This document shows positions 4,383 to 43,246 of a stretch of 64,000 nt of DNA, piece after piece. The DNA lies in the NCBI GenBank assembly GCA_006503535.1, contig QYRS01000004.1, positions 2,232,001 to 2,296,000 on the forward strand. The letters are read 5' to 3'. This DNA comes from Arthrinium phaeospermum. Taxonomy: Eukaryota > Ascomycota > Sordariomycetes > Amphisphaeriales > Apiosporaceae. The notes beneath the pieces were generated by a model. It saw nothing but the letters and a program-made list of their open reading frames with translations. It was not told the DNA's origin and ran no database searches. The position numbers and the translations under genes are program-made. How positions within the stretch are numbered: position 1 is the stretch's first letter; every line of letters starts with the position of its first letter.

Positions 4383-7250
4383 CTCCTGCTGCTTGCCAAT
4401 CTTGCTTCGCGAGATTCGCTCACGGGGACGCCCGGGCCCATTCTTGCCGGACCTCTTCAAGTCTTCGAGACGCTCCCGTGCCTTGGGGAAATCCTGGGCT
4501 GCAAATAAAAGTTAGCTCAGTCTTCTATGACGTTCTGTCACTCCAGGATAAAGCAATGTGAACTTACCAGCCGCCCTCCAATACCAACGCTTGGCATCTT
4601 CCAGGTTTGCGGGCACACCAATACCGACTTCGGTAAAGTAACCCATGGCGTATTCCGCCTTGGCCAATCCAGCCTGCGCTGCCTTCCTGGCCCAAAGGAA
4701 GGCTTCGGTGTCGCTCTGTTGCAAGACACCCTCGCTGCCTGTCAGGTACCAACCACTCAATGCAAGTTCCGATTGATGCTCCTCTTGAGTTGCTGCTCGC
4801 GAGTACCACATTATGGACGCTCGCGGATCAACGGGGCAACCCATAAGACCATACTCAAAGGCGCAACCCATTCTGAACTGGCTGAATTTGTAACCCAAAT
4901 CGGCCGCTTGCTCGAATAGCGTGAATGCGTACGCCTCATCGCGCAGGATCGTGTCGTTCGGCTGTGCCGACTCATACAAAAGACCCAACTCGTGCAAAGC
5001 ATGTGGGTTCTCTGCGTCCGAACGCTCTGCTGCCCTCTTAAGCCAGCCGACAGCTTCGCGAGGATTTCGTTGCTGACCAAGCAGTCCCTTGAGCAAGATC
5101 ATGCCAACTTTATACATCGCTGGTGTGTCGCCGAGCGTCGCGGCTCGCTTGTACCACTGAATCGCTTTGAGCGGATCCTTACGCGTACCACCTCCTTCAT
5201 CATGCCCAATCTCGCAGCAGACCGCGGTACGGTATGCAGCTGCAGCGTGACCCAGCTTCGCGGCAGATTGGTACAGAGTGAAGGCCTCCTTGTTATCAGG
5301 CTCGAAGCCCAATGTACCACGGCCTTGACAGTCTGCCAAAAAGAACATGGCATCGGAATTCTGGGCGCTCACAAGCTTCTTTAGAATCTTGTGGGCGTCT
5401 ACGACGTAGCGCTCTCGAGAACGTGCCCTTGCTTTCGGGTCTGGGAGTCTCGGCACAAGGACGTCAGCTGCTTCCACGAGCTTTTTCGCGAGCGTCAAGG
5501 CAGCTCCCTGGTCGTTTGGATCGGACTTGATTATTGCGCGTAGTCGTTCCAATTCCTCCACCGTAACCGGGATTGGCTCAGGCGGTCCGTTCTGCACTGG
5601 CATTGGCGGGGGCCGCCCCTGAGCGCCGATTGCCGCAGGCGGAGGACCGTTATACTGACGCATGGGAGCAGGCTTATCATTCATATTAACCATCGAGTGA
5701 GGCATCAAACCAGGACGGATTGGCGCTGGGTGTCCACTTCCGGGCCCAGCCTGAGAATGAGGAGGCATAGGCATAGGCTGTCCATTGTATGCCTGGAAAC
5801 CGCCATTGGGAACAGGCGGCATCTCAGCGGCCATCTCGAAAACGGCAGCCTGAGGCTCGCGCAAGTTCGGTTGTGACTTTGTCCGATTTATCTCGGGAAA
5901 GCGCATGGGGCCGCTTTGTTGAGCCATGCCGGCCGGAGGGCCAGGTTGCATGTGTTGGTCAAATGAGGCACGAGGACCATGATCTGGTGCTGCATCGAAG
6001 TCGGGGATACCATTCGGGGGGCCTTGAGGGTTAAATTCGCTCTCGCGCGGGTTGTAATAAGCGTCGTAGAAATCTCCAAATGAGGCCCGTACCGTAGGCT
6101 CGTTAGCCCACCCCTGTTGTGGAGCTTGATAATCATAACCTTGATCAAACTGCCCAGGGGGTCCTGGAGGCCCTGGCGGTCCTGGCGGTCCTGGAGGTCT
6201 CATAGGTCCAGGCGGCCCTTGGTTCGGGTACATTCTTTGAGGTGGCGGGCGATGACCTTGTGCTGTTGATGGTCTCGGGGGGCCTCGTCCAGGTGGCCCA
6301 CTATAAGGAGCACTATCTGCTCGCATTGGTAAAGGCCCGTTCCGCATACCCATAGGGGGCTCTATGTTGTTCGGCATCGTCATACTGCGCTCGGGGGGTC
6401 CAAAGTCTCCGCGGTTAGGCGACATAGGCGCCCCATATCCATCATCCTCGTATCCGCCGAAGCCTCGCTCTGGTGGGGGCCCGCGCCTGGGATCGGGGTA
6501 TCCTCTCGGAGGGGGTCCTCTTGGCAGGCTGCGTTGACTTTCCATTGAAGGCCTACGACCGCCATAATCCTCCATAGTCGGGCGTCTTTGCGCGGGTCTA
6601 TTCCCGCCAGGGCCAGGGCCGGGGCCGTTAAGGTCCATTTGTTGCATGCTGTCGAGAATGCGCGACTCCTGTTCAAGGTCTGATGTACGCTTTTGGCCTG
6701 GGAATACTGGATAGCTACTTCCGCCAAAATCTCGTTCTTGGGGGCTCATTATAGGAGGCCCTTGGCGATTCACTATGCTCGGTTAGTCAAGACAGCCCAA
6801 ATACGCTCAGGTTTGGATCTGCTTACTAGATGGGTCCGACGAAGCGGATCGATCAGGGGGTCGACCCCCTCGGTTAGGGGGAGGATAACCACGGCCAGGC
6901 CCTGGCATTGGGGCGCCGCCTCGCGGACCTCCTCGCATCATGGGTCCTCCCCTTCCGCCCATCGGTGGTGGCGGTCTGCCTCTGCCCGGTCCACCCGGCG
7001 GTGGCGGCCCATAAGCGTCTTGCGGATATCCTCCAGGGCCTCCTCGTCCATAGTTCCCGCCTTGAGGAGGGCCGTATCCATCATTGTAATCGTCAAAACC
7101 GCCGTCGTAACCATAATCGTCTTGGTACTGGTCAAACTGCTGCCGTGGAGGACCTGGGTAAGCTCCTCCTCCACCACCACCACCACCGCGCGGGGCAGGT
7201 CGTTGCGCGGCCATGCCAGCGTACGGTCGCTGGGCCCCGGGGTATGCCAT
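4362..7250 (-). CDS. chs4: Chitin synthase activator Chs4/Skt5 (Sel1 repeats, CaaX end)
   Basis: Three exons, 6827-7250, 4568-6772 and 4362-4498, encode about 921 residues. The protein should be the Skt5/Chs4 regulator that recruits and activates a class IV (Chs3-like) chitin synthase at the plasma membrane and septa. The N-terminal 590 residues are disordered and rich in Gly, Pro and Gln, with a collagen-like run of Gly-Pro-Pro near 6160-6215. Tandem Sel1 repeats follow (roughly residues 600-880; typical units end WYKRAA, WLKRAA, WYSRAA). The last exon is basic and ends C-S-V-M, a farnesylation CaaX box as in yeast Skt5. Both introns are short: 54 bp with donor GTAAGC and 69 bp with donor GTAAGT. 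The stop is UAG at 4362-4364, inside a strong hairpin, and the frame stays open for 83 more codons. Confidence 0.93.
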
Positions 7251-14443: not shown

Positions 14444-17400
14444 TTAACCACCCTTGCGCTCCTCGCCCACAAGCAAAGTCTCGGGATGGACGTCGATGCT
14501 CTCTTCCGTATTCTTGTCTGAGGCCTTATTCTTGCCATCCTTTCTCCAGGGAGAGTTGTTGGGGGCAGGAGCATCGCGAAGACTTGGGGTCTTGGTACCC
14601 GAGGAAGTCAAACCTGCCCTGTCATTCTCTTCAAGAACAGAGGCTAGGTCAGCCTGGCTCAGAGAAACCATCGTGTCACGACGGTCCACTTCCGCCTTCT
14701 CGTTGGTAGTAGCCTGAGTAGCGGCGGACGGGGTTGCCTGATCCTTGTCTTGCGAAGCAGCATTCTGGTTGGCGGCGGATGACTTCTGCTTTCTTCCCTT
14801 TGATTTCTTGGCCTGTTTAGAAGGGAAATTTTTCTTCTCGTTCTCCTTCTTGGTGGCAGGCTCCTTAGAAGTACGATGCACAGCTTCAGCGGACTGGGTG
14901 TCAGGATTCTCCCGCTTCTTGGCCTCAGCTGCAGTTCCAGTTGGAGCTGTGGTAGCAGCTTCCGAGGTATCCTTTGAAATTGGAGTCACGGCTCTCTCGG
15001 GGCCATCTTGGCTCTCAGCTCCAGCCTTGCGGTTGCCCCTAGACTTGTTCTCAGAGCCACCTTCACCGTTTGCTGCTTGAGGGCCCGAATCTTGTTCTCC
15101 CTTGATCCCAGGTTCTTGAGACAATGTAGGTGCAGAAGTAACACTGCTGCCAGCCGACTTTGTAGTTGTCTTGCCCTTCGGAGCATGCCGCTTCGTGCTC
15201 TTCTTCTTTGACGCTTTCTTGGGCTCGGTCTCTACCCACGTAGCGCCAGGGACGACAGGCTGGTTGTCAGGTACCTCTTTGGTGATAGGTTTACCCTTGG
15301 CATTAGACCCCTTGGGAACAGCATCTTTCTTCTCAGCCTGATCCTGTTTCTGAGCCTGGCTGTCATCTTGCTGTTGTTTATCTGCTTTTTCATTTGCATG
15401 ACTTGCTGGCCTATCCCCCGACGACGACTTTGTCTTTTTTCCAGAGTCCTTTTGGCCCTGCTCATCACGATCATTGTTTGTGGATTGAATTCCTTGTGAG
15501 GCATGACTCTTGGCCTTCTTGCTCTGATTGTATTTTGTACAGAAACTAGCAGGTTTCTTGGTTGGGTCACTTCGCTCTTCTGCGTGGCCAGTCTTGTCCA
15601 CTGGGATGGTAGAATCAGCTGTGGACTTCTGAGATTTACTGGGGGAAGCAAAGTCTTCAATTGCGCTCTGTCCTTCGTTGTTGACATCGGTAGATTCTGG
15701 TTCAGCTGTTGATGTAGGTGCATCAACAGTAGGAGATGGCTTAGAACCTGGCGAAACAGCTTGAGTTGGCAATTGGACAACAGGCGAGAGCTGCAATGGA
15801 GTAGTGATACATTTACCAACGTTCGTAGGCATGATACCTGAAGTACGGGTGGGCGAAACGAACTCCATCGCTGCCGGGTTCAGGGCATGCGACTTCCGTT
15901 TCTTGTCGCTGTCAACGACCTTCGTTGCATCTTCGTGGGCTCTGGGCGAGTGACTGGCCATCCGAGGAGCCGGGTTCTGATAGTCATGGTCATTGAAAGG
16001 AGGGAATGGCTCCGTCCCGGATGAAGTGAATGACATGGCTACTGAAGACACAGGCGGACTAAGGCCAAATGTAGAATAACCAAGTGGCCTCTCGGCCATG
16101 GGCCCTAGATAGGAGGGACTGTAGAGGGCATCAGCGTGATGTTCATGTGAAGGACCTGGCATATGTTGGGTTGGACCGGATCCCTGGCGTCTCTGCAGGA
16201 ACTTTCCCCGGGGAGATCTGGAATGCTCGTTATGCAGGTCAAAACCCTGGGGGTTCAATGAAGCCCCAGCAGTATTTCTCGAACCATTCTAGGGTTGGGA
16301 GGGTTGCTGCTGGGAGAGAGCCGCATCAGCAGGCTGAGGCTGATAGGAATTGGCCGGCAGCACATAGTTGCTGGATTTGTCATGCAATTTCTGCTGGCTC
16401 TGCTTTCCCTTACTCTTGCCCTTTCCATTCTTTTTCTTGTGCGGGCTCGCCTGAGGAGCAATTTCCTGAGACAAGACACTCTGAATAGGAAATGTTGAGT
16501 TGTGGGCTCCAGAAGGGGAAACGTCAACAAATCCAGTAGCTTGACAAGTATTGCCTGAATTGCCAGAAGGTGGTGCTGCCCAGTCCATCGGTATGGGCTG
16601 GTAGTTGACCGGTCTTTTGTTCAGATAGCGTCTTACAGTACCATAATCGAGAATGCGGTCCTCAGCGCCAGAGAATTGGTCCTCTTGTTCCTCCGATGGC
16701 TGATCCGAAGCATTGTCGGTGGGTGAGGCAAGGGCTCTGCTACTTTGTTGATCTCTTGGTATGGGAGTTGGAGTTATGGTGCGACTGGATAGTTGGGATG
16801 AGGTTGGTCCCTCCTGCCTATCCACAGCATCATCGTGCTCAATATCAGAATTGGGGATACTGGCGGCCATCATGTCTTCGCTGGTGTTCTTGCTGTCATG
16901 GTCCAAAGCCTCCCCTGATTGATCGAGCATGGCCACATCGCAGACACCGTCCACAGGCTTGTCACATTCTTTATCTGTACCCAGACTTGTGACACTGTCT
17001 TCGTCATTCTTAGGAGCCGGTTGAGTAATACCACCCTGTCCTGGGGATGTCACACCTGATAGCATTGCAGTACCTTCTTCGGCGTTTTCATCAATCGAGG
17101 AAGGATGATCCATGTGACTCAAGACATCGTTGACTCCTGGTACTGACGTAGATTGCTTCGCCAGTAACGCGTTCTTTGCCTGTCCATGAGGGGGTCCTGT
17201 CCAAGTTTTGGCAGCGATATGCGCAGGTCGAGCTGCACCGGACACGTCGAATTCATTCAAAATAGGGTTGTTCAGCCGTTTGGGGCCCCTGGGCTGGAAT
17301 GGTCTGGAGAACTGGGAACCATAAGCATGGTTCACCCTGATAGGATGCTCACAGAAATCGAATATTTTGCCATTGAGATGGCATTTGGCTTCGTGTGTTG

Positions 17401-19648
17401 ACTTATGCTCCGTGAATCTGGAGCCATTGTCAGTAAACCAGGTTAGAATAGTTGAGAATTGCAGACCAACACTTACCTAACGAATGCGGCCTGACGGGAC
17501 ACGGTAATGGATAGATCTTCAATTTCGCCAAAGTTAGAAAAAGCATTAAAGACCTTCCTCTCGCAATCGGGGCTTGATAGCTCTCCTAGTTGGAAGGGAC
17601 CGACATAAAGAGTGCGATCCTTGGTGTCGCAAAAGTCACACGGGCAAGGAACGTAGTTGTGTTGGTGAGAGTGGCCCGCCGTCTTGCGCAAGTGAGCATT
17701 CAAGCAATTGGGGTCTCTTGAGACGCTGTGAACAGAAGAGATGGTATCCCTACGATTGCGAAGGGTTGCAGAACTGAATGACTGCGACGGCAGCCGTTGG
17801 CGGGTATCGACCTGATCATACTCAGTCCCAGGGATTTCCTAGACTCGAGGGGCTGAAGGCTGATCAGCATGGCCGCTTGGCTTAGGCTCCCACCGGGGTG
17901 TGGCATTCTGGTGAAAGGTTGCGTGTTGTTGATTTGGCAATTGGTGGAAGCCATTTGTGAACTGATGCCTATTAGACCCTTGTGGCCAAAAGCCAGTGCC
18001 TTCCTGTTGGTGTCTTGGGTTACCAGTCTGACGACCAGCCTGAGGTACTGTAACCGTTTGCTGAGGCAGACCACCAAGTGGTGCTGACGGCGGATACTGA
18101 GGTTTAACGAAACGATTCTGGCCCTGGTGCACAAAGACTGGCCCATAAGCGGTATTGCCATTGTACTGTGAGTAGTTGTTGGGTCGGGCATAGCCATTGC
18201 CGTAGGCCGAAGTGACAGGAGCTCTTGATCCGTTTGACCCAAAATAGGTGGTGCTTACTCCGTATCCATGCTCAACAGGAAGTTCAGACGGTTGACGGGG
18301 TCTATGCTTATGTGCATGAGATGTGAATCCCTGATGCCCATCTGGACCTCTCATGCCATTTGCATGTGGTGCTGCTTGATATGCTGAGCTTCTGGGATAA
18401 TACCACGAGTTCGGCTGGCCATCAGGAGTATACAGGCCGCCCGGGGCATTTGTGGGTTTGTCGTACAAGACTTGGGTAGTAGAGGCTGGATGGAAGCTGT
18501 TCCGTGTCGAGGGTGGTACGACCAAATCACTCCGATGAGAAGCGCTAGAGTGAACCTCTTCTCTTGGATGGACTTGGTTCGGTGCGTTGGGGGTACCCAG
18601 GGAGGCAGTACTGGCTTTTGGCGTTTTGTCATGAGCCTGCGTCTCCGAATCTGTCTCAGCCTTGTCCATTACAGTTGCAAGAGTGTTTTCACCGTCGGAA
18701 GCACTCTCAGCACTGGGGTTACGCCTAGCCTTGGTAGCTGCTGCTGAGGTTCTATCGACAACACATGTCTCCTTGGTGGCTTCTCCGTTTTTGCATTGCA
18801 CATCCATCTCCTCATGAGCTACCACAGCAGGCTGGGGACGCTGGGCGGTGGTGTGGACTAGAAAACGACTGCGATTAGCAAAGCGTACTTATACTGTTTG
18901 GGTCTTTTCACATGGACTTACAGCTCCACTCAGAACCAGCGAATCCATGACTGTTCTCCATTTCTGTCGTGGAAGAACGGGCTGGCTTGTGAGTTGTCGG
19001 GCGAGGAGGGCAGTATGTGCCTCGGCGGATATGTCCACGAGCACACTTCAAGACATCGCGTACCAGAGAAAGCCAGTACATATCCAGGCCATCAAGATCC
19101 TTCAATTCATCCGGCTGGAACACACCAAGGATATCATATCCATCTTCGTCCTCTTCCCACTTCAACAGCCTCTCTTGGCGCTTGGGGCTTCTCAACAGTA
19201 CACCTGCCCACTCTTCAACGCAGGTGCGGACTTCTGCAGTGACCTCAGGCAACTCACGTTGGGTCTCCCAGTATATATGCTGCAGGACATTCCACAGGTT
19301 CTGAGCGCCGGAGTCCCACAGATCACTGGTGTCCCAATAATCGTGAAGGTCATACCAGGACACAGGCTGCCTGATATGCTTGAAGATGGGGAAGCAATAC
19401 GTGCGAATGGTGTCTGCGGCCTGCTTGATTTGGGCATGACTCCATTGAGTAATTCGACGGGGAGTGGGGAAAATGTCAGGGTCACGACGTGGCATTGTGC
19501 CCATGCGAGTTGAGAAGTGAGCTGGTGAGTGTTTGTATGCCTTTGTGAAAAAGTCCATAGACGGCTCGAGTGCAAGGTAGTTCTTAGCATCCCGACCAGA
19601 AGGAGGCCCTCCCCTAGCACTGAGTTCGGGCTTGAAGTACGACGCCAT
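14444..19648 (-). CDS. Large RRM protein gene interrupted by two in-frame UAG codons
   Basis: Three exons (18922-19648, 17477-18857, 14444-17417) join in one frame of 1693 positions plus a final TAA. The introns have GTAAGT donors. The frame contains exactly two internal stops, both UAG, at codon 582 (17839-17841) and codon 1079 (16289-16291), with no frameshift. Residues 1-242 are a helical region rich in Trp and Tyr with no recognised family. Residues about 243-620 are disordered and rich in Gln, Pro and Asn. An RRM lies at about 655-730, with RNP2-like TLYVGPF and RNP1-like AAFVRF, the latter formed across the second intron. The rest, to 1693, is disordered and Lys/Ser/Thr/Gln-rich. Without recoding, the RRM could not be made from this start, and no in-frame ATG follows the first UAG before the RRM. 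Recoding by A-to-I editing, readthrough, unseen splicing, recent decay or sequencing error are all possible. Confidence 0.62.
16264..16315 (-). promoter_or_regulatory. RNA hairpin with the second UAG of the RRM gene
   Basis: In the transcript, CCCAGCAG (16314-16307) pairs perfectly with CUGCUGGG (16272-16265), extended by a wobble pair. Inside it, AACC (16296-16293) pairs with GGUU (16285-16282), closing a 7-base loop CUAGAAU that holds the UAG. Functional meaning is inferred. Confidence 0.4.
17821..17849 (-). promoter_or_regulatory. RNA hairpin with the first UAG of the RRM gene
   Basis: In the transcript, CUC-g-AGUC (17849-17842) can pair with GACUGAG (17827-17821): seven pairs with one bulged G. 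UAG forms the first three bases of the 14-base loop (17841-17828). The stem is modest and could be chance. Confidence 0.35.
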
Positions 19649-32448: not shown

Positions 32449-33349
32449 TGCCCAGGGTATGGTTTGTGACTCGTTCAATGCGTGTCTTGAGCCAATGCAG
32501 TGAAAAGAAGCCTTTTGAGGGTGTACGGTTGTATTCACTTCCAATGATCTTCATGGGCTGAGGCCTCACCTTTCAGCCCAGCACACCAGACCGCAGGTTT
32601 GGGTTACCAGTCACTCTTCAGGATTCGAGCGACATTCTGGTCACTGAAAGCATAGCGACTGCAAGACGTCAGGGGTCGGAAGCTTACGAACAGTCATAAC
32701 ATACTGTAACAGTTTGTTCTTTGGACGCTAGTCGTGCATGTGTGAGGAGTACCAACCTCTATCAACGAAGCATGCTAAGAACTGATATAGGGCAAACAAA
32801 TAAAGATTACCTCTACTTCTCTCATCCGGCCAGTACAGTTTCCCAATACCAAACATGTTGATAATAGGCTCTATTCCAACTGAAGCTTAGGCATTCCAAA
32901 GTCCACAACGCGTCTTGGTGTCACTGACGGTGAGTCTTAGGGGGCATCACCGGCCACATCATATGCGTATGCTTCTTCATGTTGACTAGAGTATCCCCCA
33001 TTAAAGGAGGCCACTACCTACCTCCTAAGATTCAAAATGACAATGCTGGTCGAAAGAGAAACATGAAAGAGGATGAGCATGGTTTGCTTTTGATACCTAG
33101 GAGGGAAAATGCCAGGCGAGGTGCCACGTTGATTGAATGGTGCCACATGATTGCACAGCTGCCTCTTTAGCGCCGACTGCAGCAATTGAGCGAGTGCCGC
33201 ATGCTAAAACTCACCATTCCAAGACCCTCCCACGCACTGGCCCACTGCTCAGATGAGCGTAAAGTTCCCACCTGCCGTATCCTCATTGAACATTAACTGC
33301 ATCTTAGCTCACTGCCACCACGAAACACCATATCAAAGCATCAGACCTT
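32449..33349. other. Divergent spacer, no gene seen
   Basis: Separates the acetyltransferase gene (minus) from med17 (plus) and should contain both promoters. Open frames are short and without family resemblance. Confidence 0.5.
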
Positions 33350-35191
33350 ATGGAACATCAATCTCCCTTCTCGCTGAGGCCATGGCCTCAAGGCGACAAG
33401 AAGCCCAAGAACATTGAAGAGTTCGTGCAGCGTGTGAGCGCCGAGCGCAATGGCTTCCGCAATGTCAAGGAAGCCGACCTCGTCGAGGAAATCAAGGCGC
33501 GCGCGGCAGGAGCTGCCAACCTGGACAATAGCCAGGGCAGCCCCGAGGGTGACTCGGAATCGGACACCGAGGCCGAGAACGACAAGAAAGAGAAGACGGC
33601 TGTTGAGGCCCGCGACGACTTTCTGAGAAACCTCGAGGCGGCGCATCAATCGGCTATGCTGAATCTGGACCTGGTCTCTCTTCTTCTTTCCAAGGAAACG
33701 CCCAACCAAGCTGGCACAACCTTATCCCCCACCCTTCGTGAGCTGGTTGGAATCGGCACTCTGGGCTCATCGAAAGTGCACCAGTCCAACATCACACCCG
33801 CCAGAGAAGCCGACGATTTGGCCGTGGGTACAGGATGGAGAGTGATGGGCACCAATAAGATGGTCAGCTCTGTCTTGGAGGCAGCCGAGCGACTCGAGAA
33901 AGAGATCGCCCTCGAAACCAAGTACTGGGCCGATGTACTTGCCGTCAGTGAGAGTGGCTGGGCCGTGTCGTCCATGGTTGGCAAGGGTCTCGGCGTTCGT
34001 TTTGGTTTTGCCGAGGCTGCACCGATGTACAGAGACAGCAGTATCGCGCGGTTGGTACGGAATGAGGACGGCAGTGCACGACTGGATCATGGACAAGCCG
34101 GAAGGGGCTCTCAGAGAGCGCGCGCTATTATCGAGGTCGATGGCAAGATCGTCGGGCGGTCACGTCTCCCCGGCAGCCTCCCGGACAACAGCCGCCTGGA
34201 GGACCGGGTTCTCGAGGCCCGTAACACCATCTTCGCACAGGAGTTGTGGTACGAGATTAGTCGCGAATCACGTACGCTTCTTTCTCTTGGTGTCCAGTCG
34301 GACGGCTCGCAGGTTTCCTACAATGTAAACCCCAGCACAAGGGTGATTATACGCCTGGAGGATCTTGCGGAACCAGAACTTCCCGAAGACGGCAACCTTT
34401 ACGACCAAATGGCAGAGCTCACGATCCAAGGCCTCAACCTCTTTCTGATGGCCGCACATCGTCAAAACTACAGCAAACGAGTACAACCGAAGCATGGACG
34501 CAACAACCCACCTCACAACCTCCTACGGCCCCTTATCTCACGATATCGGTTTACTCTCGACTACGACAAGCTGGTTGGATTCATAAGCAGTCTGACCGAC
34601 TCTTTGCATACTGCAGGCTTCGATTCAGCAAGCTTCACCAAAACGCAGCCATCCCTCAGTTTGCAGCCGCCGTCTCGAGCCGACACGGACCACGCCCTCT
34701 CGCAAGCAGAGATGCTTATGTTGAATACCATCAATGTTCAGCAGTTCTCAGCTGATATCTCGATCACGCCGGAAACTCGCATCGGCTTACGCGCAAAGGC
34801 TTTCTTGTCACTGGATGCTACGCAATTCAAAATCTCACTGCCTGGCCCACAGAACCCCCTTGTCAACCTATACCCCTCGTCGGATACGTACCCGAACGTT
34901 GATGAAGCGATACACTACGTCAGACAAGCCACGATCCGCGCCATCGTCGAAAGGCTGCTCGAGTTGACCTCGGAGAAACTGGCGAAGGAGGAGCTTGGCT
35001 GGGGCGATGCCGTGGACGGCGTTGCGCTTGTAGATGCGTCAGACAGGGAGCTTACCATAGGCACCGAAGGGACACAGCTTGTCGCAAAGACCAAAACCCA
35101 ACGGCGCACTTGGAGTGTTGGCGTTTCGTCGCAAGAGAATATGGAAGAGTTCGTGCTCAAGTATTTCCAGAGCAAGGAGGATGTTCAATGA
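33350..35191 (+). CDS. med17: Mediator complex subunit 17 (Srb4)
   Basis: Intronless gene of 613 residues. Med17 is the scaffold subunit of the Mediator head module, which connects activators to RNA polymerase II. Fungal Med17 landmarks are the N-terminal SPFSLRPWP motif, the acidic linker, RDDFLRNLEAAHQSAMLNLDLVSLLLS, and the conserved middle beginning GTGWRVMGTNKMVSSVLEAAERLEKE. Next comes KYWADVLAVSESGWAVSSM, followed by LGVRFGFAEAAP. Length and single-exon structure fit filamentous fungal orthologues. The next gene downstream is transcribed in the same direction. Confidence 0.92.
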   Translation: MEHQSPFSLRPWPQGDKKPKNIEEFVQRVSAERNGFRNVKEADLVEEIKARAAGAANLDNSQGSPEGDSESDTEAENDKKEKTAVEARDDFLRNLEAAHQSAMLNLDLVSLLLSKETPNQAGTTLSPTLRELVGIGTLGSSKVHQSNITPAREADDLAVGTGWRVMGTNKMVSSVLEAAERLEKEIALETKYWADVLAVSESGWAVSSMVGKGLGVRFGFAEAAPMYRDSSIARLVRNEDGSARLDHGQAGRGSQRARAIIEVDGKIVGRSRLPGSLPDNSRLEDRVLEARNTIFAQELWYEISRESRTLLSLGVQSDGSQVSYNVNPSTRVIIRLEDLAEPELPEDGNLYDQMAELTIQGLNLFLMAAHRQNYSKRVQPKHGRNNPPHNLLRPLISRYRFTLDYDKLVGFISSLTDSLHTAGFDSASFTKTQPSLSLQPPSRADTDHALSQAEMLMLNTINVQQFSADISITPETRIGLRAKAFLSLDATQFKISLPGPQNPLVNLYPSSDTYPNVDEAIHYVRQATIRAIVERLLELTSEKLAKEELGWGDAVDGVALVDASDRELTIGTEGTQLVAKTKTQRRTWSVGVSSQENMEEFVLKYFQSKEDVQ

Positions 35192-39635: not shown

Positions 39636-42600
39636 TTAACGACGGGGGCCAACGCCAAAGAGGAAGGCCAGGTCGTTCGAGGAGAGACGGCCAAGATCTT
39701 TGGCTACCTTCTCGTCCATAGCACCTTCCACGATATTGCGCTTCTCCTCCTGCAATTCCATGATTCTGTCCTCCACCGTCTCCTTGACTAAGATCCGGTG
39801 TACCGTGACGGGCTTGCGCTGGCCAATGCGGTAGGTTCGATCGACAGCCTGCTTCTCGATGAAAGGGTTCCAGAAAGGATCCATAATAATGACCCTGCTG
39901 GCGCAAACCAAGTTCAGACCAGCGTTTCCAGCCTTCAGTGAAGTAAGCATAACCTTCATGCGAGGGTTCTCGGCAAATTCCTGGACCGCCTCATCGCGTT
40001 GTTTGGCCGACATGCCTCCATCGTAACGCCGGAATCGAAGACCATCTTCCTTCAGAGGGACTTCCATTAGGTCAAGAAGAAGGGTCCACTGCGAGAAGAC
40101 AATCGTCTTCTCACCAGTTTCCTGAATGTCCTGGATGAGCTGACGGCACTTGTCAATCTTGGCCGACGGCAGCCAGATGTTGGTGAGGTAACTGAGGTAC
40201 TTCCTGTGTGCATCGACGTTGCGAGAAGCATCCTTGCGCAACTTCGCAAGCATGTGGGGTTGGATATCCTCCTCCTTCTTGGCCCTCTTCTTCTTGCCCT
40301 TGGCCTTGCTCTTGGCCTTGCTCTTGGCCTTGCTCTTTCCTTTGCCCTTACGTGGCTTAGGCTTGTATTCGTCATCGTCGTCATCCACGATGAAATCTTT
40401 CAGGTTACCGCGATCGTCAATATCGTCACCTTCGTCTTCTCCCGAGTCAGTTTCAGAATCCGAGTCATCCTCATCAGAGTCAGCAGCTTTAGACTCAGCA
40501 CCGGCGTCCTTGGGGGATCCGGCTTCAGCATCGCCAGTTTCTGGCATAAACGTGTCCTTGAAAGCGCTATACGTGATGGCTTTCTTCATGTCGAACTCGG
40601 CACGGCAGATGATGCACCTCGGTTTGCCACCTTCAATTCTCTGTTGCTCCGAGCTATTCGCGTGAAGCTGGAGACACTCATGGCAGGCGTAGTGGCCGCA
40701 AGGAACAAGAATCGAGGGGTTCCAAGTATATTCGTAGCATATAGGGCAAAGGAACGGTGTGTCCTCGTCCATGAGAGCATCGACCCGCGTAGAGTGGATC
40801 TCCTTTGCAAGGGTGGTCATATCCGTCTCCGAATTAGCATTGTTGGTGAACTCCAGGTCGGTAATATGCAAGTACGGGTGGCAACAAGCCTGACGCAGCC
40901 GCAGCAACTTCACCAAGACGTACTGGTAATGCTTGCCCACGGTACCAGCTCTCAAGTATTTGCTGAACTCCACTCGAGACGCATGCTCCAGATCATCATA
41001 GTATTGCTGCTCATCCTCATTGAAAACGACATGGTCGGTGATCTCCGTCTTGGGCGGCAATGTGATGATTGGTTCTCCGTCAATCTTCGACGTCTTAGTG
41101 CGCCGGAGCATGATGGCACGCAGCAGTACTTGTAGCGACTTCATGACGCTGGCAGGATCATCGAAGCCTTTGTTGCCTTTGGGGTACAACGCATTAAACT
41201 TCCGCCTGAACTCCTGCGGGTCATTGTAGGGTTTGATTCGCAGAAAATGGATCAGAGAGCCCATTTCATCCACGCTGTTCATCATTGGCGTACCCGATAG
41301 ACACCATCTGTACTCTGCAGGAATACGACAAACTGCTTGGTGCATCTGAGTGCTCTTGTTCTTGATCATCTGTGCTTCGTCGACGATGATACGCAAGAAT
41401 TTTTGTTTGGCGCAGAGGAAAGGAAACTTCTCTGCTAGGACATCCTTGTCGAGCGGCTCGCCTTTATCGGTCTTGTCCTTGGTGAAGTAATCCAGGGCCT
41501 TGTACTCTTGGCCAAGCTTGCCATAGGAGGTCAGCACAACATCGTACTTGCGCAACTGACTGAAGGGCAGCTTCTTCTTGTGGTAGTTCCAGACCAAGAG
41601 GGAATAAGGGTACTTAAGTTTGCTCTCGATTTCCTTCTCCCACTGGGCGATAAGCGATACCGGTGCGACAACAATGTTGGTGCCCCCGCGACCTGGGTAA
41701 ATTTTGTGCTCTGGAGTACGATCCTGGACGATGAGTGCGAGCGATGAAATCGTCTTGCCAAGGCCCATATCATCCGCGAGTATGCCGCCCCTCTTATGCT
41801 CGTCGGCTTCCATTCCTTTCATCCACTTGAGGGCGATCTGTTGATGCTTATACAGTGGCTCTTTGAGAGCGGCCGGTGTGCTGTCACCATCAGCAGTGCC
41901 TGCTTCAGTCGAAATATTCGTCAGGAGCGCCTTCACTTGGTCTGATTCATCGTCGTCACCAAATGGAATAAACACTCGGTTATTCAGTGGGTCTCCATGT
42001 TCGTTGGTGCCATTGGCATAATCGTAGTTATTCGTACGCTGAACAATATCGGCCAGTGACGAAGTGCCGGGGCGATAGACGGAGGTTTTAGCTCCACTGG
42101 CGTAAACTCCGTTGGCAAGAGGGCTCGCGGCGCCGTTGGTGATAAATCCAGGGCGTTGACGAGAAGACGTACTGTTCTCCGACGGGCCTGGAAAGGGAGC
42201 ATTGGTTTCAAACCGCTGCCGCTGGATTGCAGCATGGTGGGCAAGGTCCCTGGCCTGCATATTTATGGTGCTGCTTGAAGGAACGAACCCATCATTGGGT
42301 TGATCGTCTGTGAGATCAACAAAGTTATCCTCGCCGATGTTCCAGGATCCAGGCATCCGAGGTTCTGGTAAAGCGGCTGGCTGGTATGGCTGGTATTGAC
42401 GCGATCGATCATGGCTGCTGGGGCCGGATGGACTCTCAAACTCGTTGTGCGAGAAGGACTCTTGTGCCGCTTCCTCTTCTTCCTGAATCATACGAGCGAG
42501 CGCGGCGTCTTGCTCTTCTTGCTCCCGTCTCTGACGAAACGCAAGTTCGCGCCGCTCATGTTCATTATTGACATCATCTCCAAACAACTCATCCTCATCC

Positions 42601-42833
42601 TCACCAAAGCGCAGTGCTTTTGACTCTGGCATTGAAGGTGATCCGTGGTCAATGTGAGTGCTGTATGTACGCTTTCTGGCGTATTCGTTGCTGCTGTTGC
42701 TGGCGTATTCATTGTTGATGTTGCTGGTATCATCCCAGAGGTTTTCGCCATCGAAAGGCAACCCAGAGACGCTTTCCTGATTCGGCACAGGGAAGGTGCG
42801 ACGAGCACTCTCATCGCTGCTTGATCCAGCCAT
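39636..42833 (-). CDS. SNF2-family ATPase with RING finger (Uls1/Rrp-like)
   Basis: Intronless gene of 1065 residues starting at the ATG at 42833. SNF2 ATPase motifs are present: DDMGLGKT (motif I, about 354-361), VDEAQMIKN (motif II) and LSGTPMMNSVDE (motif III). C-terminal motifs are TSLKAGNAGLNL and DRTYRIGQ. A C3HC4 RING (CPIC...CGHYACHECLQ...CIIC, about 690-740) lies between the two helicase lobes. This is the hallmark of the Rad5/Rad16/Uls1 group, DNA translocases with ubiquitin-ligase activity. No HIRAN domain is visible, which argues against Rad5. An acidic-flanked VDLTDD at about 172-177 is a good SUMO-interacting motif, favouring a Uls1/Rrp1-2-like SUMO-targeted role in genome stability. 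A Ser/Lys/Ala repeat follows the RING. Confidence 0.9.
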   Translation of the reverse strand: MAGSSSDESARRTFPVPNQESVSGLPFDGENLWDDTSNINNEYASNSSNEYARKRTYSTHIDHGSPSMPESKALRFGEDEDELFGDDVNNEHERRELAFRQRREQEEQDAALARMIQEEEEAAQESFSHNEFESPSGPSSHDRSRQYQPYQPAALPEPRMPGSWNIGEDNFVDLTDDQPNDGFVPSSSTINMQARDLAHHAAIQRQRFETNAPFPGPSENSTSSRQRPGFITNGAASPLANGVYASGAKTSVYRPGTSSLADIVQRTNNYDYANGTNEHGDPLNNRVFIPFGDDDESDQVKALLTNISTEAGTADGDSTPAALKEPLYKHQQIALKWMKGMEADEHKRGGILADDMGLGKTISSLALIVQDRTPEHKIYPGRGGTNIVVAPVSLIAQWEKEIESKLKYPYSLLVWNYHKKKLPFSQLRKYDVVLTSYGKLGQEYKALDYFTKDKTDKGEPLDKDVLAEKFPFLCAKQKFLRIIVDEAQMIKNKSTQMHQAVCRIPAEYRWCLSGTPMMNSVDEMGSLIHFLRIKPYNDPQEFRRKFNALYPKGNKGFDDPASVMKSLQVLLRAIMLRRTKTSKIDGEPIITLPPKTEITDHVVFNEDEQQYYDDLEHASRVEFSKYLRAGTVGKHYQYVLVKLLRLRQACCHPYLHITDLEFTNNANSETDMTTLAKEIHSTRVDALMDEDTPFLCPICYEYTWNPSILVPCGHYACHECLQLHANSSEQQRIEGGKPRCIICRAEFDMKKAITYSAFKDTFMPETGDAEAGSPKDAGAESKAADSDEDDSDSETDSGEDEGDDIDDRGNLKDFIVDDDDDEYKPKPRKGKGKSKAKSKAKSKAKGKKKRAKKEEDIQPHMLAKLRKDASRNVDAHRKYLSYLTNIWLPSAKIDKCRQLIQDIQETGEKTIVFSQWTLLLDLMEVPLKEDGLRFRRYDGGMSAKQRDEAVQEFAENPRMKVMLTSLKAGNAGLNLVCASRVIIMDPFWNPFIEKQAVDRTYRIGQRKPVTVHRILVKETVEDRIMELQEEKRNIVEGAMDEKVAKDLGRLSSNDLAFLFGVGPRR
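40300..40335. repeat. 12-bp coding minisatellite, three perfect copies
   Basis: TTGGCCTTGCTC is repeated three times without change inside the helicase gene. It encodes the Lys-Ser-Lys-Ala repeat after the RING finger and, being a multiple of three, can vary in copy number without breaking the frame. Confidence 0.85.
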
Positions 42834-43246
42834 GATGTTGGTGCCTGTTCTGTGTAACGCTTGCACCGAGCCTTTGCGAGAAGGAAAAATTAGTTATGGT
42901 GTAAAGACACGGGTCAAGAAGGCATTTCGCAGTACTCGCTCGAAAGATGAGAAGAAATCGTGCACCTTACACAAGCTTCGGTGCAAGATAAAGAGTGAAT
43001 ATGGTGGAAAGAATGTGTCGGCCAGGTGGGGAGGACCTCAATGTAATCAGAAGTTGAATCGAGCTGCCTTGTCGCTTGCGATACATGAGAGTGTAAGGCA
43101 GATGCAGATGGGTACAAGCTCCGATGGAAGGTGGTTTATAGAGAAGGATTGAGGTGAATGCAAGTGCAGTGTGAAAGGGAATGAATGTTGCTTCACAAAG
43201 ACGAAAACGGGTGGTCAATGAAAGGGAAGAGAGGGCTGGCTGGCTT
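42834..43246. other. Leader/promoter of the SNF2 gene
   Basis: A 413-bp spacer between two minus-strand genes. On the minus strand it is pyrimidine-rich with CTTTCATT/CCCTTTCA stretches, as in fungal promoters and 5' leaders. No coding frame is supported. Confidence 0.45.

What the first reader, a model, noticed from the sequence alone, without database searches (positions are those of the whole stretch)
14444..19648. One 1693-codon RRM gene carries two in-frame UAG codons and no other defect
The exons join in a single frame whose total length is an exact multiple of three. The only interruptions are UAG at codon 582 and UAG at codon 1079. Coding-like sequence continues in the same frame on both sides of each. 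No in-frame ATG lies between the first UAG and the RRM, so the RRM can only be reached by passing that UAG. Sexual-stage A-to-I mRNA editing, known from Fusarium and Neurospora, changes UAG to UGG and repairs exactly such genes. If this holds here, the full RNA-binding protein is made only when editing is on, and a 581-residue form otherwise. Readthrough or recent decay are alternatives.
Basis: partly seen in the sequence, partly recalled or inferred. Interest (0 to 1): 0.88.

Follow-up and report, generated by a model that had tools for sequence, protein, structure and literature searches.

The report
RNA-binding gene gated by editable stops
A fungal RNA-binding protein gene carries two built-in stop signals exactly where related fungi have the amino acid tryptophan, so the full protein is probably made only when the fungus edits the message, as is known for a set of fruiting-body genes in other fungi.

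Summary
On the minus strand three exons join into 1693 codons plus TAA, interrupted only by TAG at codons 582 and 1079. The fungus is Apiospora or close to it. Among 18 relatives every residue readable at the two sites is Trp (5 of 5), four proteins end exactly there (two per site), and other models skip or start after a site. In the tree the site-1 stop (seen in 3 lineages, unreadable in 3) marks one clade, yet the frame behind it stays open and conserved. Site 1 has all six nucleotides preferred by the Fusarium editor; site 2 lies in an anticodon-like 7-nt loop. The genome encodes Tad2- and Tad3-like deaminases and an Ame1-like protein with the MV residues tied to editing. Best reading: premature-stop-correction A-to-I editing at two sites in series, giving 581, 1078 or 1693 residues. 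RNA was not available, and the relatives' stop codons are known only as protein ends.

The parts
18922..19648 (-). Exon 1: ATG in a CACCATGG context; N-terminal region, helical in a low-confidence model, no Pfam family
18858..18921 (-). Intron 1, GTAAGT...TTCTAG, 64 nt
17477..18857 (-). Exon 2: linker without predicted structure, first UAG, start of the RRM
17839..17841 (-). Site 1: in-frame TAG, codon 582; 6 of 6 preferred positions of the Fusarium editing motif; Trp in two relatives, protein end in two
17324..17616 (-). RRM (about residues 657-734), interrupted by intron 2; coordinates converted by hand from residue numbers
   Evidence: PF00076 31.2 bits; weak sequence matches to U1A and NELF-E RRMs of solved structures
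17418..17476 (-). Intron 2, GTAAGT...CTCCAG, 59 nt
14444..17417 (-). Exon 3: rest of the RRM, second UAG, long C-terminal region, TAA at 14446-14444
16289..16291 (-). Site 2: in-frame TAG, codon 1079; Trp in three relatives, protein end in two
16282..16296 (-). Predicted anticodon-like hairpin around site 2: AACC-CUAGAAU-GGUU, the UAG adenosine third of the 7 loop bases

Best explanation
The gene encodes an RRM protein whose full-length form depends on premature-stop-correction (PSC) A-to-I mRNA editing. The two UAG codons stand where the frame of relatives has Trp (UGG). Unedited mRNA gives a 581-residue protein without the RRM; editing at site 1 alone gives 1078 residues including the RRM; editing at both gives 1693 residues. 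The likely editor is the Tad2-Tad3-Ame1 complex, so the long forms are expected in sexual fruiting bodies. Shown here: the frame, the two TAGs, the Trp/stop alternation in relatives, conservation behind the stops, the motif and the loop, and genes that look like the editor's subunits. Inferred: that editing happens, its stage, its enzyme, and that the relatives' stops are also UAG.
For: Trp at 5 of 5 readable relative residues at the two sites. Four relatives end exactly at these codons: P0007 and P0008 at site 1, P0002 and P0004 at site 2. The C-terminal halves of A. marii and A. phragmitis are annotated as the next-numbered gene (P0011, P0012). Other models skip a site or start after it; the same three kinds of annotation error are reported for the edited CHE1 gene (PMC11169179, passages). 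Window against P0005, codons 700-1693: 317 differences, 14.6-16.8 stops expected if neutral, one present in the window, the site-2 TAG. Under random nonsense mutation the chance that both stops arise as TGG to TAG is 0.001-0.016. Site 1 motif 6 of 6, shared by 33 of 1119 UAGs in the window. Site 2 loop type is shared by 5 of 1119 UAGs. Ame1-like protein with MV (L012), Tad2-like (L014) and Tad3-like (L020) genes.
Against: No RNA data. Relatives are known as proteins only, so their stop codon type and hairpins are unseen, and protein records are stop-free by construction, which biases the neutral test on the relative's branch. Site 1 is mostly predicted in a stem (loop probability 0.33-0.35 at +-30 and +-40 nt, below 0.03 at +-15 and +-20), and site 2 has only 4 of 6 preferred positions. 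10 of 22 UAGs in the CDS are in hairpin loops anyway. No PUK1-like kinase with in-frame TAG was recognised in this genome. The A. aurea model P0006 leaves the conserved sequence after about residue 377 for unknown reasons. Motif and loop rarities were counted after the sites were known.
Confidence: 0.85

Rival explanations
1. Pseudogene: the stops are ordinary nonsense mutations and the downstream sequence is decaying.
For: Two in-frame stops; no RNA evidence of a full-length product.
Against: A protein end at site 1 in two relatives and at site 2 in two others; conserved sequence behind both; one of about 15-17 expected stops present downstream (about 7-8 expected if only the window's share of the differences is counted, by hand from branch lengths). 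The window's C-terminal segment is no more diverged from P0001 than that of P0005, which has Trp at site 2 (72.7% against 69.9% identity).
Confidence: 0.03
2. Translational readthrough of UAG without editing.
For: Would also keep the downstream frame under selection.
Against: The following codons are GAA and AAT, not the leaky contexts known to me (recalled, no call). Relatives have Trp, which fits UAG/UGG exchange; near-cognate reading of UAG usually gives Gln, Tyr or Lys (recalled).
Confidence: 0.04
3. An alternatively spliced intron removes site 1, as the A. marii model suggests.
For: A 168-nt in-frame GT-AG stretch (17893-17726) matches the gap in the A. marii model; FgBUD14 combines editing and alternative splicing (PMC11156358).
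Against: The donor GTGGGA is poor; the only branch-like site lies 26 nt from the donor; no GTRNGT donor lies within 250 nt upstream of either site. Parts of the skipped stretch are conserved coding sequence in P0004, P0007, P0008 and P0009, and P0001's model has other borders. It cannot explain site 2.
Confidence: 0.03
4. PSC editing by an OLD-type (OTT_1508) deaminase, as in the Neurospora antiviral OLD-ZAO pairs, rather than by Tad2-Tad3-Ame1.
For: Six OTT_1508 matches in the genome, one near a zinc-finger-like gene with an in-frame TAG.
Against: None of the six lies on the window's contig C4; OLD proteins primarily edit their neighbouring ZAO transcripts (PMC12754623, passages).
Confidence: 0.05

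Closest known systems
PUK1 of Fusarium graminearum / NCU03242 of Neurospora crassa (PMC4817773, passages)
   Same: UAG codons in frame, corrected to UGG by sexual-stage editing; Trp and stop alternate between species at two sites; annotation inserts a false intron.
   Different: PUK1 is a kinase with two adjacent UAGs; here they lie 497 codons apart on either side of an RRM, so an intermediate product is predicted. Editing is not shown here.
CHE1 of Fusarium (PMC11169179, passages)
   Same: A stop conserved between species of one genus, three kinds of annotation error, no conserved downstream Met.
   Different: Zinc-finger factor, one stop, edited in hyphae at a low level.
OLD-ZAO module of Neurospora (PMC12754623, passages)
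   Same: UAG-gated gene; [quoted passage not shown]
   Different: Neighbouring OTT_1508 deaminase gene and zinc-finger target; neither was found at this gene.

Membership tests
PSC-edited (UAG to UGG) gene of Sordariomycetes | Only in-frame defects are UAG | tested here: met
   2 TAG, 0 TAA, 0 TGA before the final TAA
PSC-edited (UAG to UGG) gene of Sordariomycetes | Trp at the same codon in relatives | tested here: met
   5 of 5 readable residues; protein level only
PSC-edited (UAG to UGG) gene of Sordariomycetes | Selection on the frame behind the stop | tested here: met
   protein level, no dN/dS possible, relatives' records stop-free by construction
PSC-edited (UAG to UGG) gene of Sordariomycetes | Preferred flanking nucleotides | tested here: met
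   U at -1 at both; site 1 has 6 of 6 and site 2 has 4 of 6 preferred positions
PSC-edited (UAG to UGG) gene of Sordariomycetes | Site in a hairpin loop (a preference, about 62% of known sites) | tested here: inconclusive
   site 2 yes in every fold tried; site 1 mostly stem
PSC-edited (UAG to UGG) gene of Sordariomycetes | Genome encodes Tad2, Tad3 and an Ame1 with the MV residues | tested here: met
   L014, L020, L012; named by motif, no tree made, position of MV off by one against the paper's numbering
PSC-edited (UAG to UGG) gene of Sordariomycetes | A-to-G at the sites in sexual-stage RNA | not testable with these tools
   no RNA reads available
OLD-ZAO module | Adjacent OTT_1508 deaminase gene | tested here: not met
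   six matches in the genome, none on contig C4
RRM protein (PF00076) | Score above the Pfam gathering cut-off | tested here: met
   31.2 against 20.7 bits

The most novel reading that the evidence does not exclude
Two editable stops act in series as a graded gate on one RNA-binding protein: unedited mRNA gives the N-terminal part, editing site 1 adds the RRM, editing both adds the C-terminal region. Species differ in which lock they carry (stop/stop, Trp/stop, stop/Trp) but keep at least one. All 3 lineages readable at both sites fit this: the window, A. phragmitis, and P0008 with P0005, joined here by equal contig length (69380).
Probability: 0.45. Interest if true: 0.7.

Novelty: new member of a known kind. 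Interest (0 to 1): 0.55.

Why it matters
It extends PSC editing, by comparative evidence, to Apiospora; in the held open-access library 0 papers contain both 'Apiospora' and 'RNA editing', and a wider search on Xylariales or Amphisphaeriales was seen only as a list of 12 of 2,643 papers, none of which has a title about editing in these orders. It gives a natural series of Trp/stop states at two sites of one gene within a genus, which can test whether editable stops are kept by selection. It also warns that some annotated Apiospora genes are probably halves of one gene.

Tried and rejected
Looking for a PUK1 orthologue with in-frame TAG in this genome: the six TAG-bearing kinase matches that I opened (L035, L036, L037, L038, L041, L042) have their stops at apparent introns or exon borders. 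One further match listed with a TAG (C2:1471687-1472016) was not opened, and one search scored 120 of 193 candidates (143 of 144). The DNA methyltransferase search (RID family) showed no TAG in 4 of 4 matches; one has 1 TGA and 2 TAA.

Structure: two AlphaFold2 models of P0004 had mean pLDDT 33.4 and 32.6, so no fold search was run; only a helical N-terminal region and an RRM-like order of strands and helix show. Alignment A4 was set aside because I judged that fragments disturbed it; A5 was used instead.

A genome-wide count of TAG-interrupted genes was not possible (the genome gives no file). No named relative outside Apiospora appeared in the three protein searches; one search scored only the 7991 candidates sharing most words. 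In the tree 13 rows were used: P0016 and P0017 (A. arundinis, near copies of P0015) were left out, P0005 was blanked before residue 700 and the two site columns were masked.
Full report
What is there. The gene lies on the minus strand. Three exons join across two standard introns into 1693 codons and a TAA; the only other in-frame stops are TAG at codons 582 and 1079. The translation has no Met between codon 582 and the end of the RRM. The RRM scores 31.2 bits against Pfam's cut-off of 20.7; its best solved relatives by sequence are weak matches to U1A and NELF-E RRMs (E 0.0002 and 0.0005). The other pieces have no Pfam family above cut-off.

Where it comes from. The full-frame search, with X at both stops, returned five proteins: four named Apiospora and one unnamed. 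Two further searches with N- and C-terminal alignments returned 4 and 11 rows, giving 18 different relatives; all named ones are Apiospora, five are unnamed. I therefore place the window in or next to Apiospora; the species is not known.

State of the two codons in the 18 relatives. Site 1: Trp in 2 (P0004 A. phragmitis, P0009); protein ends exactly there in 2 (P0007, P0008); the model skips it in 2 (P0001, P0002 A. marii) or starts after it in 1 (P0003 A. saccharicola); 11 do not cover it. Site 2: Trp in 3 (P0001, P0003, P0005); ends exactly there in 2 (P0002, P0004); starts after it in 9 (P0010-P0018); 4 do not cover it. So all 5 readable residues are Trp. The C-terminal halves of A. marii and A. 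phragmitis are the next-numbered gene models, PG985_012281 and PG994_007623. That the skipping and late-starting models hide stops is an inference. PMC11169179 (passages) reports the same three kinds of annotation error at the edited stop of CHE1, and PMC4817773 (passages) a false intron at PUK1. The A. aurea model P0006 leaves the conserved sequence after about residue 377; I do not know whether that is a model error or damage.

The stops are old and the frame is kept. In a tree of 13 rows one clade of six (support 99) holds the three lineages with a stop seen at site 1 (window, and the contigs of P0007 and P0008) and the three where site 1 is unreadable; the two lineages with Trp lie outside it. 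Site 2 changes state more than once. The root is a midpoint and one deep branch has support 34, so the order of events is tentative. Window and P0005 differ at 121 of 376 residues (700-1078) and 196 of 587 (1080-1693). If this stretch were neutral, 14.6-16.8 nonsense mutations would accompany those 317 differences; one is present, the TAG at site 2 in the window. P0008, whose contig has the same length as that of P0005 (69380), ends at site 1, so both sequences appear to carry the first stop. Protein records are stop-free by construction, so the test is fair only for the window's branch, about half of the distance; about 7-8 stops would then be expected. Window and A. marii differ at 105 of 987 residues behind site 1, with about 5 stops expected and none seen apart from site 2; here P(0) per segment is only 0.05-0.10. 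The window's C-terminal segment is 72.7% identical to that of P0001, and P0005's 69.9%, so there is no sign of faster change behind a stop.

Origin of the stops. Counting one-step routes to a stop in this gene's codons, the chance that both new stops are TGG to TAG is 0.001 to 0.016, depending on transition bias. Editing predicts just this, because G-to-A at TGG gives an editable UAG.

Fit to the editor's preferences. In F. graminearum the editor prefers C/U, U, A/G, G, A/G, A/G at -2, -1, +1, +2, +3, +4, and sites with all six preferred nucleotides are less often in hairpin loops (PMC9600606, abstract and sections 6 and 7). Site 1 has six of six, as do 33 of 1119 UAGs on both strands of the window; site 2 has four. 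Site 1 is predicted mainly in a stem (loop probability 0.33-0.35 at +-30 and +-40 nt, below 0.03 at +-15 and +-20). Site 2 is in a 7-nt loop, CUAGAAU closed by AACC/GGUU, with the adenosine third, in each fold from +-15 to +-40 nt. In the anticodon loop the edited A34 is also third of seven and follows U33 (recalled). 5 of 1119 UAGs in the window have such a loop. Since 10 of 22 UAGs in the CDS are in some hairpin loop, 'in a loop' alone says little; both rarities were counted after seeing the sites.

Machinery. Editing needs Tad2, Tad3 and Ame1, a DUF726 protein whose MV residues arose in Sordariomycetes (PMC11087585, passages). The genome has four DUF726 genes; one (L012, C3:650486-651574) has MV at the corresponding place and the others LD, KS and RN. 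In L012 MV stands 30 and 29 residues before the nucleophile serine, whereas the paper's numbering gives 31 and 30, so the match rests on the local alignment. A Tad2-like gene (L014) and a Tad3-like gene with the catalytic Glu replaced (L020) are present; these were named by motif, not by tree.

A second UAG-gated candidate. Six OTT_1508 deaminase matches were found. About 2.4 kb from the one on C7 a zinc-finger-like gene on the other strand has an in-frame TAG in a predicted hairpin loop (TAG at C7:383250). It resembles the OLD-ZAO pairs of Neurospora (PMC12754623, passages), though its fingers score below the Pfam cut-off (17.7 against 25.2 bits). It suggests, but does not show, that UAG gating is used in this genome.

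Mechanism and limits. I conclude, at 0.85, that this is a PSC-edited gene with two stops in series and three possible products. The stage, the editor and the role of the RRM protein are inferred from known members of the system. RNA evidence is missing, and the stop codons of the relatives are not visible because only their proteins were held. The review PMC11156358 was read in parts 1 and 2 of 3.

Noticed in passing
L052 (G000:C7:380700-390600): OTT_1508 match 4929-5129 +, zinc-finger-like gene about 2750-1968 -, TAG at 2551: OLD-ZAO-like pair: an OTT_1508 deaminase gene about 2.4 kb from a gene with finger-like motifs and an in-frame TAG in a predicted hairpin loop; fingers below the Pfam cut-off.
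   Followed up: partly
G000:C3:508901-509083 and 511546-511725: Two OTT_1508 deaminase matches lie within 3 kb on the same strand; no convincing zinc-finger partner in the 15 kb read by simple motif scans.
   Followed up: partly
L009 to L012: Four DUF726 (Ame1-family) genes; only L012 carries the MV pair linked to editing.
   Followed up: partly
window 17893-17726: In-frame 168-nt GT-AG stretch over site 1 that matches the gap in the A. marii gene model and is probably an annotation artefact there.
   Followed up: partly
P0006 (A. aurea), after its residue matching window residue 377: The model runs out of the conserved sequence and also reads through intron 1; cause unknown.
   Followed up: no
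window 39636-42893, 33308-35191, 4512-6782: Neighbours include a SNF2/RING helicase, Mediator subunit 17 and a Sel1-repeat protein; no deaminase among the ten frames scanned.
   Followed up: no
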